From Cristatella mucedo (Eukaryota; Bryozoa; Phylactolaemata; Cristatellidae), in the NCBI GenBank assembly GCA_009760855.2, contig WPIO01000071.1, forward strand, positions 411,501-475,500: DNA of 64,000 nucleotides. The letters are read 5' to 3'. Below the pieces are notes generated by a model, which saw only the letters and a list, made by a program, of their open reading frames with translations, was not told the origin of the DNA and did no database searches. The position numbers and the translations under genes are program-made. Each line of letters opens with the position of its first letter. Within the stretch, counting starts at the first letter, position 1. Below, piece after piece: positions 5,179 to 57,659 of the stretch.

Positions 5179-5239
5179 ATGTCTGCCAGCTCAAACTTTC
5201 GAGTCATATTTACCTTATTTATCGTATTCTTATCGAACG
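5179..5239 (+). CDS. Copy A exon 1: signal peptide
   Basis: ATG plus 19 codons and one base read [20 protein letters not shown], a short polar start followed by a hydrophobic core, typical of a secretory signal. The donor is g|gtaagacc, phase 1. Length (61 nt), phase and the FRVxF...SN pattern match exon 1 of copies B, C and D, which decides the ATG. Confidence 0.75.
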
Positions 5240-8200
5240 GTAAGACCGAGCGGACCCACACACAGTTAGGGTGCAATTGTTTCCGCTTCTATAAAGCTTA
5301 TATAAGCTCCAGGCGTCTCGCCTACCGCCCAAGTGATTGCTTGAAGCCATGTAATCGCTCGTGCAATTGTCCATCTGGCCAGTTGCACTAACTTCAAAAG
5401 CAATAGAATAGCTAATAATGACACGTTTCAATGATGAGCGAAAGCTGTTATTGTTAGAACATGTCCTTGCAAGTTAGCTAAAGCATCTTTTTTTCGATCT
5501 AAGAACATCCACAATGAATCACTTCGCTAGATATTGTTACTGAACTCACGAATATTACTGTGCCCCGAATCTGGCTCAATTGTTGGTTACTTTCTTAGCC
5601 TGAAAAGAAGCTTTAATTTCGTTTCGCTGACAGTGAATTACGCATATAAAACTGTTGTTTCCTGTATACCTACTATTGTTTTGCTGGGTGTCTCATATGT
5701 TTGGGTGCCCTCCTTATTGTAAACAGCACTAGCTGTCTGATAAAGTGAGCTACGACAGGATCGGCAATATTCTGTAAAACAAGCTCAAAGTATCTTTGAG
5801 GTAGTCACTCTGCTCTCAAATTGGTTTGAAAATGCAACCGGAAGATCGTAACGCAGTTTATGTAATCATATTAGGATCTAAACTATACAAAACAATAGTT
5901 TTGGTGGATTTGTGTGAACAATGACCTTACAAAAGTGAGACCTGGTTCAAGTCATACTAATGTGTCTTTTATCATCAGTGCACGTGTCATAAAACTCTGC
6001 ATCTAACGCTCAGTTTTACACCTCAGTTATATCTTACATTACCAAAATATTCTGTGCTCGAATTCGGTATACAAATTGAGCTATGCGATTTCTATCCAAA
6101 GTTGTTATCCAAATAGATTCGAATTGTTGAAGCTCTGACTAATTGCCATTCCGGAATATGAATACTGAGCACTGCCACAAGAATAATCTGCTGAATTTCT
6201 GTTGACATTATTTTTATTGCTAGCCACCTCATTCAGTGAATGCTTTCACGTGACCTAAATAGCATGATATGAGTAAGTAATATTAGGGATTTCGCCAGTG
6301 GTAGTGATACCGGAACGTGTCATGCTGCTGTCAAGTGAAGTTTATATACATTTAATCGTTGAATTAAGCGTTTTCCATAAGTACTGTAAATAGAACTTGT
6401 AATCTCTTCAGTAATAACATGTCATGTGTATGTTAGCTCAGTTTCCTTTACTTGCCATGGCTACAGCTTGCCAACCTGCATGGGCTACCAGTCAAGCGAC
6501 GGATAGACTTTAAGGTTTTATCACTCACTATTAGGTCCTTTTATTATTTGGCTCCAGCCTACCTATCTGATCTACTCCCTCACCAGGCCAAGCCTCTTAC
6601 GGCCAACTTTTCGGAAACTAATATTTTGCTCATACCTAGTGCTAACCTCTCATCGTTTTGAGACTGTGCGTGTAATTCTATGCTCCCAAGACCTGAAACT
6701 TACTCCCGACTTGCGTCACGACATCCTTGGGCTTAAACATGTTAAAAACTGTTCTGGACAGCAGTTACTGAGTCCCTGTGATTCGTCTTTTATGTGCTTA
6801 TGTGTGCTGAAACTGTGCATACTGCAACTAAGCACACTTGCATGCTGACCCTGTTCGTGTCATCCCTAACCATATTATTCAATTTGTTTATTAAGCACGA
6901 TATTACTCACCACTCGATCGTGTTTCCATTGCGGCAAATGTAAAGCGCCTAGAAAGAAGTTTAAGTTATCTGAGGGTGCTTTATCAAGTGTATTGTTACT
7001 GTTGTTATAATTATTAAGTTGTTGCTACTACTTTCAGTGCAATTGTCGCTACAAAGTAAATACTGTTATTTAGACTTTAGACTCGCAAAAGCAGTAATTA
7101 AATCTGTTTTTTTTTCTCACAAAGACCTTCACGTTGTATCCGCTAGGCGTTATATGTGCAAGATATGATAAGGGTGTTTGTAGAATATTTCCCCCAGCCA
7201 TTCCACCCCTGGTGGACTATAGGACATTTTCATCCACGGACATTCCATCGCAGGGTAAGATATTTCCTACATATTTTGATGAATGTATGACTAAGAATAT
7301 ATATATATATATATATATATATATATATATATATATATATATATCTATCTATATATATATATATATATATATATATATATATATATATATATATATATAT
7401 ATATATATATATATATATATATATATATATACATGTTCAAATGAAGTTCGAGCTCTATAGAAATGAAATTAACTTAGTGTAAGCCGCCGTCGACGAGACC
7501 AACCCCGGCTGCCGAGGCGGCTGACTACTCCAAGCTGGCCGTACTGTATCCGTCTGCCCTGCTATCGAGGCGCCGTTTATACTGAGTTGATTGTATTTCA
7601 CTAGAGCTTGAACTTCACCGCAGTCAACGCCCGACGCCGGTGCAGCAACGACAGCTGCGGTGGCGGCGGTCAGCTTTGGACGGGTGGTAGCCGGTGGTGC
7701 CGTTATCGGGAGGGGTGGCGGCCAAGCGGCGCCGACGGCCGATGATACTTCTATGCGCCAGCTGCTGCTTCCGAGAGCGTCTGCTGCTGGCCGCCTGGGC
7801 CAGAGCTTTGACCTTGCACCTGGTTGTCTGCCGAAAAGCAGTGCCACTGCGGCCGCATTTCTAATGACTATAATGTAGGAATATATTATATACTGTATAC
7901 TATTTTTACAAGATATGTAAACAAGACAGTTTATATCATGGCACATCCTTACGGGAGGGGAGAAAATGCTCTACCCCACGGTAGGAAATGTCTTACCCCA
8001 GGGGGAAACGTACTACCCCAGGGTGTTAGATGTCCGGGGCAGGGAGCGTAAGGGGAAAGTCCACAGGGGATTGTCGGTACCCCATGTAGGCACTTTCCAC
8101 AGGAAGCCCCTCTCAACTCCGGCCAGTCATCACGTGTTCTACCAATACAAATGCCTGATTCTGATTCAAGTATCCTAGTCACTAAGCTAAACCGGAACCA

Positions 8201-55800: not shown

Positions 55801-57659
55801 TATTTTTGTTAATTTTAAAAGTGATAAAACCTGTGAATATCGTGACCAAGTAGAATGTTTTTTCTAGGCTTGGGAGCATACGAACTAAAGACAGGGTCTC
55901 CAAAGGATTTGAGATTAGTAGGAGGTTTAGATGAACGATTACATTTCGTAAAGCGGGTGGCTAGATGCTTAGGATGGTGAAAGAGTACATGTGATAGGTC
56001 GTCTGGAGCCATAGAATAAAGAGACCTAAAAGTAGTTGGCAAAACCTTGAAGTCGATGCTTGGCTTGGCTGGGAGCCAGTGCTGGTCAGCCAAAAGTCTT
56101 GTGATACGGCAACGGTGACTCTTACGACGGGCAGGCCTGTCGGCAGAGTTTTGCAACAGCATTACCCAACTGATTGATCATACCAAAGACAAGCAAGCAG
56201 ACAGTTACAGAAGTCTAGACGGAATATCACGAAGACATTCACAAGTTTAGACGTTCTATCCCCGTCTAAATACTTCAAACATCCTCGAACTTTTGCGACG
56301 TTGAATACCTCAAGGTATACAAACTTTACTTAGGTAAAACTTAAACTTTACGAGCATGTGGGGTCGACTAACGATACGTCACTGTGGAGCAGGACACCTA
56401 TATTACCTTCAAAGTCTCCAGAAGACGTTCTGGCAGAGCCGATTTTAAGCGTTACGTTTTTACAGATTTACATGCAGTTATTAGTATTAATCTCGATATT
56501 CGTGCTCACATGTTTGTTCTGGGAGATCTAAATCTCTTTCCAGGCACTTTTATAGGCTGAAACTGAGGTATTTTCAAAACGGTTAGTAATAACATGAGCA
56601 GTTACTGTATTGTTCTACTTAAAATATGCATGAAGGTCATTGCGTTATTATTGGATGCTCTTAAACTAGTAAAGCGAGTTGAAATGTCTACATGAATCGC
56701 TTATAGTGTAAACTCAGCTATCGGCTTTTACAATAAATAGCGCCGCCACAGGCACCACCTAAGAATCTGAGCTCTAGCACTTCGGATTTCTTCGCTGACA
56801 TGTACGACACTAAAAAGAACAGAAGAAAATTTCCAGTATGTTTACTAACTGAAGCATCTGTATACGAGAGAAAATTCTTTTGCATTACCCGGCTACACCA
56901 AAAAGTTGTTTCCCCATTTTTTGACGCGCCAGCTGCGTAGCGTATGATATTTTATATTCACTTACGTAAGCTTATTGTTTGATCGAGCTTCAGCGAACTC
57001 TCAAACCTCCTGCACACTTAGTGTCTTTGGCTTTGTTTAATTGGGCAACATACATGTGTATGCATTGGGTATCAATACTTAACACGTGGGTACGCTCACA
57101 GTTATTCAATTTATGAAATGGCCCTGTTCTTGATTTTCTTCTCTCAGAATCGCTACAACTTGAAATAACAGTGAGTAACTATCCACCGTTCAGCGTAAAT
57201 TGCCTTCAAAGTTATCCATGTGCGACGACACCTGATAAGCCCTCTCTCAAGGTGACAGGAATGGAACTTCACCCAAGCAACAAAAACAGCTGCAGTGCGA
57301 ACATTATTAACCACGTCACCACTGAAATAGAGGTCTTCACGAATTATGTCTGTCGAACGAATGGGACAACGGACTTGCGATCTAAATCGCTCTATAATAG
57401 CACTCAAGATTATGGATGCAGTGTCAACATAATTGTCACAAGAATTGTTATAAATTGTGAATGTACTTCCGAACTCTTACCTGGATTGGAGAGCTCATCA
57501 AAAACTTCTTCGTTAACGTCGGCTCGTTTTTCGTCCGTGACAACGTACGATGCCACAAGTTCTTCGACCAACAATCGCGGTACGTCGTCTGTTATGAACA
57601 CGGGAAGTAGCTACAAGCCTTCGTATTCTGGGAATTCAGACCAAGGTCATTCATTCTAG
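52750..57659 (+). CDS. Copy D: likely secreted two-exon member
   Basis: Exon 1 52750-52810 and exon 2 57148-57659 join in phase 1 to give 190 residues: a signal peptide, the same seven-cysteine domain as copy C, a stalk, then GNSDQGHSF and a TAG stop. The donor used in copy C (tctg|gtaagt) is tctg|ggaatt here, so the exon reads through. No membrane or tail exon is recognised between 57660 and 64000. The product would be secreted. It could be a functional soluble relative or a pseudogene whose ectodomain is kept alike by conversion. Intron 1 (4.3 kb) holds several LINEs. Confidence 0.65.
53590..53830. repeat. taccccag-type repeat and AC-AT-GT microsatellite in copy D intron 1
   Basis: ggacatttcc and C-rich runs (53590-53705) end in ggggtaggacatttcc, followed by (AC)n, (AT)n and (GT)n (53731-53826). 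The AC and GT arms are complementary and can fold into a hairpin. Confidence 0.85.
53830..54825 (-). mobile_element. LINE 3' part
   Basis: Begins directly at the end of the GT run. The minus strand reads [40 protein letters not shown] and IRAWMAANFLKLNDDKTNLL. Its own tail is missing at the left; the microsatellite replaces it. Confidence 0.85.
54826..55434 (+). other. Copy D intron 1, unassigned
   Basis: No repeat or exon recognised apart from the perfect hairpin at 55184-55216. Confidence 0.4.
55184..55216. repeat. 14-bp perfect hairpin
   Basis: gatatttaacgcga, loop cttaa, tcgcgttaaatatc, in copy D intron 1. Confidence 0.75.
55435..56340 (-). mobile_element. Divergent LINE copy, paralog of 29440-30480
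   Basis: The minus strand reads LADQHWLPAKPSIDFKVLPT and FRSLYSMAPDDLSHVLFHHP. It matches the block at 29440 but has no SINE at the corresponding site near 56065. Confidence 0.75.
56350..56660 (-). mobile_element. Decayed LINE pieces in copy D intron 1
   Basis: ggcagagccgattttaagcg and the 3' region around ctttccaggcactttt; paralogous with 37126-37420. Confidence 0.5.
57148..57659 (+). CDS. Copy D exon 2: extracellular domain, stalk and stop
   Basis: Acceptor cttctctcag|aa as in copy C. The first 483 nt differ from C at 8 positions in six codons (L81I, I83V, F88V, A169V, C176Y, E177K). The lost donor adds nine residues and a stop. Confidence 0.75.

What the first reader, a model, noticed from the sequence alone, without database searches (positions are those of the whole stretch)
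5179..57659. Tandem family of four receptor-like genes with shared exon phases
Four 61-nt signal-peptide exons (5179, 14238, 35902, 52750), all phase 1 and all behind the same promoter block, head a head-to-tail array. Copy C joins into a 329-residue protein with ectodomain, one membrane helix and a tyrosine tail. I do not recognise the family. The architecture is that of recognition or immune-type receptors; function is inference.
Basis: partly seen in the sequence, partly recalled or inferred. Interest (0 to 1): 0.9.

Follow-up and report, generated by a model that had tools for sequence, protein, structure and literature searches.

The report
Tandem array of orphan surface receptors
Part of a long row of related animal genes, one of them complete here, that look like cell-surface recognition receptors with one small disulphide-bonded outer domain and a tyrosine-bearing tail; no relative was found in the databases searched, and what they recognise is untested.

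Summary
All four 61-nt signal-peptide exons are present, end in phase 1 before a GT, and lie behind a shared promoter block (0 of 200 shuffles reach any of six pairwise scores). Copy C splices, with five AG/GT-bounded exons, into exactly 329 residues: signal peptide, one Cys-rich domain, Ser/Thr stalk, one membrane helix, tail with seven tyrosines. Only C is complete in the window: A has no membrane exon found, B lost a splice acceptor and shows no ectodomain or last exon, D lost a donor and continues outside. Pfam, PDB and a 5.8-billion-protein search gave no relative. Low-confidence models resemble rhamnose-binding (SUEL) lectin domains among tied unrelated folds; sequence profiles support that weakly at most. 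Best reading: a birth-and-death cluster of type I recognition receptors. Immune or allorecognition function is inference. Species not established.

The parts
4781..5178 (+). Promoter block, copy A
   Evidence: Profile match 4781-5239 including the exon, E 2e-104 (the four copies built the profile); aligned with the other three
5179..5239 (+). Signal-peptide exon, copy A, 61 nt, phase 1
9677..10318 (+). Ectodomain exon, copy A, phase 1 in and 1 out, six Cys in the family order, GC3 0.74
   Evidence: 20% identity to C, four Cys columns coincide and two lie one residue apart; five Cys invariant in six copies; GC3. Left-out profile test did not recover A (E 0.16). Borders read
12159..12294 (+). 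Tail exon, copy A, ending at a stop after the first tyrosine unit; two further homologous pieces follow to about 12423, one in another frame, one behind stops in the first frame
   Evidence: a joined row of A was part of the query
13819..14237 (+). Promoter block, copy B
14238..14298 (+). Signal-peptide exon, copy B, 61 nt, phase 1
25829..25913 (+). Transmembrane exon, copy B, phase 1 in and 2 out
   Evidence: One of three distinct donors in a hydropathy and splice scan; tblastn with C's exon, E 0.008
27149..27281 (+). Fourth exon, copy B (membrane-proximal tail with YYxxL), acceptor CG instead of AG
   Evidence: 49% identity to C over 43 aa, E 7e-7; acceptor
35483..35901 (+). Promoter block, copy C
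35902..35962 (+). Exon 1 copy C, signal peptide
37926..38408 (+). Exon 2 copy C, Cys-rich ectodomain plus Ser/Thr-rich stalk, phase 1-1
40457..40568 (+). Exon 3 copy C, membrane helix, phase 1-2
42197..42328 (+). Exon 4 copy C, tail with YYxxI
45609..45810 (+). Exon 5 copy C, tail with YxxL and YxxM, ends at stop; AATAAA near 45941
52331..52749 (+). Promoter block, copy D
52750..52810 (+). Signal-peptide exon, copy D, 61 nt, phase 1
57148..57630 (+). Ectodomain exon, copy D; donor GT changed to GG; 96% aa identity to C inside a near-identical tract (C side about 37706-38425)

Best explanation
The window holds part of a head-to-tail, birth-and-death array of single-pass (type I) cell-surface receptor genes. 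An intact gene (C) encodes a signal peptide, one small Cys-rich ectodomain (five invariant Cys and one mobile one across the copies aligned; models suggest strand-strand-helix-strand-helix-strand, perhaps a very diverged SUEL/rhamnose-binding-lectin-like fold), a Ser/Thr-rich stalk, one membrane helix and a tail with several tyrosines. Shown here: the exon structure of C, the shared promoter, the homology and order of most copies, decayed copies, different tail exons behind related ectodomains, and a near-identical tract between C and D best explained by gene conversion. Inferred: ligand binding (a glycan or a surface protein) brings kinases to the tail, whose membrane-proximal [E/H]YYxx[I/L] site and, in one flank gene, a YxxL-x7-YxxV pair would recruit SH2 proteins; the array would give a varied set of specificities and outputs, as immune or allorecognition receptor clusters do.
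For: C's complete model. Shared promoter. Ten ectodomain exons, all on the + strand of 294 kb searched in six frames: A, C, D, Z, G, F, H, I by profile, Y and J by pattern; C is recovered by a model built from four other copies at E 1.1e-8, best non-family hit 0.48. Membrane exons homologous to C's in B, D, F and I (shuffled-ORF best E over eight models and four nulls 0.045). Tail types in D, G/F, J and Y unlike C's. dN/dS point estimates below 1: G/F tail 0.40, C/F ectodomain 0.63, exon 4 B/C 0.61 (0.405/0.665). C keeps five open exons while copy I, 74-83% alike through most of the gene region, has stops and frame breaks. Conversion tract 95-100% identical against 63-83% in the upstream flank.
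Against: No transcript or function data. The family-blind scan for membrane exons in Y, Z, G and H proves little by itself: the same scan gives 12 donors on the + and 14 on the - strand of the 294 kb. YxxPhi counts in five tails do not exceed shuffles (P 0.17-0.66); no ITIM or ITAM by the patterns used in C, G, F, D, Y. A and Z are not recovered when left out of the profile (E 0.16, 0.85; Z had E 0.0014 with the A+C model), nor J and Y (0.86, 1.1). Membrane exons C/I and C/D show little constraint (dN/dS 0.81, 0.79) and exon 2 C/D has dN 0.018 against dS 0.014 on 8 changes. Fold models have mean pLDDT 43.6 and 45.8.
Confidence: 0.6

Rival explanations
1. The family is a set of adhesion, gamete or mucus surface proteins, not immune or allorecognition receptors; divergence reflects sexual conflict or pathogen contact, and the tyrosines serve endocytosis (YxxPhi) more than signalling.
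For: A single small ectodomain, Ser/Thr stalk and YxxPhi sites fit endocytic or adhesion proteins as well; motif counts are at chance.
Against: Changing tail types behind related ectodomains and one YxxL-x7-YxxV pair (read by eye) are more usual in recognition-receptor clusters (recalled).
Confidence: 0.22
2. Most of the array is a pseudogene graveyard with one or few living genes; the locus carries no receptor repertoire. (Not exclusive of the main reading.)
For: A, B, D, F and I each show at least one lesion in splice site, frame or a missing exon.
Against: C is intact; G's ectodomain and tail exons are open and the G/F tail has dN/dS 0.40. Mixed intact and broken copies are usual in birth-and-death families (recalled).
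Confidence: 0.3
3. The exons belong to a transposable element.
For: LINE pieces fill much of the window.
Against: The exons are not repetitive: eight genome matches for C's ectodomain, the five strong ones on this contig; four for the G tail, all in this array.
Confidence: 0.02

Closest known systems
Fester co-receptors (FcoR) of Botryllus schlosseri (PMC12065747: abstract, passages and section 9 seen)
   Same: Type I receptors in clusters with gene-content change, a tail with a core Y-x-x-I/L/V motif, diverse ectodomains
   Different: FcoR are 520-610 aa with IgV, sushi and two C2 Ig domains; C is 329 aa with one Cys-rich domain that matches no Pfam family. FcoR are described as paired with fester genes in two of three haplotypes; I did not search for fester genes systematically
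SUEL / rhamnose-binding lectin domain (Pfam Gal_Lectin PF02140; latrophilin, CSL3)
   Same: Order of strands and helices in both models and position of Cys at the ends of the long helix and last strand (my reading); 7 of 15 aligner rows for the C model are such lectins
   Different: No Pfam hit for the seven ectodomains scanned, no YGR and no DPC-KYL motif, eight-Cys pattern not kept, local profile comparison at chance
NK-type and agnathan or teleost paired receptor clusters, Hydractinia Alr (recalled, not tested)
   Same: Tandem single-pass receptors with interchangeable tyrosine tails
   Different: Those use Ig or C-type lectin domains

Membership tests
FcoR (Botryllus) | 520-610 aa with IgV, sushi and two C2 Ig domains | tested here: not met
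   C is 329 aa in five exons; no Pfam family at E<=1 for C
FcoR (Botryllus) | Tail with ITIM, hemITAM or core YxxI/L/V | tested here: met
   Core YxxI and YxxL only; no ITIM; number of sites not above shuffles
FcoR (Botryllus) | Encoded beside a fester gene and a HECT ligase | tested here: inconclusive
   Not searched for; only a few selected ORFs were scanned with Pfam
SUEL / Gal_Lectin PF02140 | Significant profile match | tested here: not met
   No hit at E<=10 for C, A, F, G, H, Y, Z ectodomains; D, I, J not scanned; the filter drops most matches above E 0.1
SUEL / Gal_Lectin PF02140 | Conserved YGR and DPC-KYL motifs and eight Cys | tested here: not met
   Alignment A3 (6 copies) against A4 (9 SUEL domains)
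SUEL / Gal_Lectin PF02140 | Fold | tested here: inconclusive
   [not shown]
ITAM or ITIM immunoreceptor | YxxI/L/V-x6-12-YxxI/L/V or [SILV]xYxx[ILV] | tested here: not met
   None in C, G, F, D, Y tails; J, outside the window, has YxxL-x7-YxxV (by eye)
Transposable element | Dispersed genome copies | tested here: not met
   (counts are lower bounds)

The most novel reading that the evidence does not exclude
A previously undescribed, lineage-restricted recognition-receptor complex: a long cluster of single-domain receptors built on a diverged SUEL-lectin fold, with swappable activating-type tyrosine tails and ectodomain gene conversion, serving immune or allorecognition discrimination without Ig or C-type lectin domains.
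Probability: 0.3. Interest if true: 0.85.

Novelty: new variant of a known kind. Interest (0 to 1): 0.6.

Why it matters
Animals without antigen receptors must still tell self, kin and microbes apart, and few of the receptor families that do it are known. A clustered, diverging receptor family with no database relative and a possible new use of the rhamnose-binding-lectin fold would be a direct candidate to test by expression, knock-down and ligand screens.

Tried and rejected
Transposon reading: rejected. Pfam at E up to 10 for 7 proteins and the 6 members of A3: only chance hits to SVS_QK. PDB by sequence: best E 0.55, taken as chance. Foldseek: nothing at E<=0.001 for either model. SUEL by local profile comparison: P 0.18, 11 of 60 column shuffles as good; global comparison 0 of 100 in each of two nulls. 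Species: I suspected Botryllus schlosseri from genome size (572 Mb) and window GC 40.9% (40.5% in PMC12448946, passages). A search for GH6, expected of tunicates (recalled), was silent, but so were its 14 controls; a COX1 search did not complete (last try). Species left open. A's membrane exon: strict and relaxed scans found none. A family-blind membrane-exon scan was first taken as support, then found no richer on the array strand (12) than on the other (14). Literature searches (listings only, except PMC12065747 and PMC12448946) showed nothing describing this family; most subscription papers and bioRxiv preprints are not held.

The Cys regex was written after members were known (9 hits, all in the array; ten shuffles gave 1-4); Y and J first entered by eye. 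Copy letters differ in some scripts: E and F there are F and H here.

Full report
What was checked. The window is contig C656:411501-475500 of a 572,011,866-base, 688-contig assembly. Its GC is 40.9% and it carries many pieces of a LINE (one ORF reaches 696 proteins at E<=1e-5, of which the 120 best are listed; the few named ones there are mostly called reverse transcriptase or hypothetical; the L2/CR1 label is recalled). All coordinates below are window coordinates; negative ones and those above 64000 lie in 230 kb of flank fetched.

The observation. The four signal-peptide exons are each 61 nt and are followed by GT, so each ends in phase 1. Their 420-bp upstream stretches are alike in all six pairs; none of 200 dinucleotide shuffles a pair reached the real score. 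A profile of promoter plus exon, built from the four, finds them and nothing else below E 0.6 in the window, and one further promoter-only place at -8991..-8632. Copy C gives a 329-aa protein from five exons with ag/gt borders: signal peptide, about 110 residues with seven Cys, a stalk (46% Ser/Thr over a 56-residue stretch) and two N-glycosylation sequons in the ectodomain, one membrane helix, and a tail of about 112 residues with seven tyrosines. An AATAAA lies about 130 bp after the stop.

State of the other copies in the window. A: signal peptide, a 642-nt ectodomain exon with both phases 1 and GC3 0.74, and a tail exon starting at 12159 that ends at a stop after its first tyrosine unit; two homologous pieces follow, one in another frame and one behind stops in the first frame. 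No membrane exon was found between 10.3 and 12.2 kb. B: signal peptide, membrane exon 25829-25913, fourth exon 27149-27281 whose acceptor position reads CG; no ectodomain or last exon was found. D: signal peptide and ectodomain exon whose donor reads GG; a membrane exon homologous to C's follows at 64670-64784, and a tyrosine-rich ORF at 69557-69949, taken as D's tail by position only.

Tails. B, C, F and G share a membrane-proximal YYxxI/L; the ORF given to D has HYYSTI. Behind it the tails differ: C, A, Z and I share one last exon, G and F another, and the ORFs given to D, Y and J are each of their own kind. J's ends with a YxxL-x7-YxxV pair, read by eye. In the five tails tested there is no ITIM or ITAM by the patterns used, and the number of YxxPhi sites is at chance; the argument rests on conserved position, not on counts.

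Evolution. Between C and D about 700 bp around exon 2 are 95-100% identical in 60-column blocks (last block 87%), while the upstream flank is 63-83%; exon 2 has dS 0.014, the C/D signal-peptide exons 0.30. Gene conversion is the simplest reading. dN/dS point estimates, without a test: 0.40 for the G/F tail, 0.63 for the C/F ectodomain, 0.81 and 0.79 for the C/I and C/D membrane exons, 0.61 for exon 4 B/C.

Conclusion. A real, longer-than-reported cluster of type I receptor-like genes, one complete in the window, of a family I could not place. Mechanism and immune role are inferred from architecture. The Botryllus FcoR family is the closest by way of working that I read about (PMC12065747, parts) and differs in size and domains.

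Noticed in passing
2834-3075 (-): Diverged fragment of eukaryotic large-subunit rRNA, 76 bits
   Followed up: partly
1092-1161 (+): A possible further signal-peptide exon of another kind (70 nt, phase 1, followed by gtattt), read by eye; no promoter-profile match there
   Followed up: no
7937-8852 and 10430-11405: A repeat pair about 82.6% alike lies on either side of copy A's ectodomain exon
   Followed up: no
window coordinates -72023..-71556 and -62717..-62112 (-): Two Cys-rich ORFs on the minus strand near the array, alike by eye and each with one other hit in the 264 kb; not among the ectodomain profile's hits
   Followed up: partly
[not shown]
   Followed up: no
-2478..-2370 (+) and -8991..-8632 (+): A membrane-exon candidate like Y's and a promoter block without a recognised signal-peptide exon: perhaps one more unit upstream of A
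   Followed up: no
about 117700-160000: Many overlapping Ala/Arg-rich ORFs, reading GC-rich (GC not computed); one ORF at 134796 has a Ly6-like Cys ending (label recalled)
   Followed up: no
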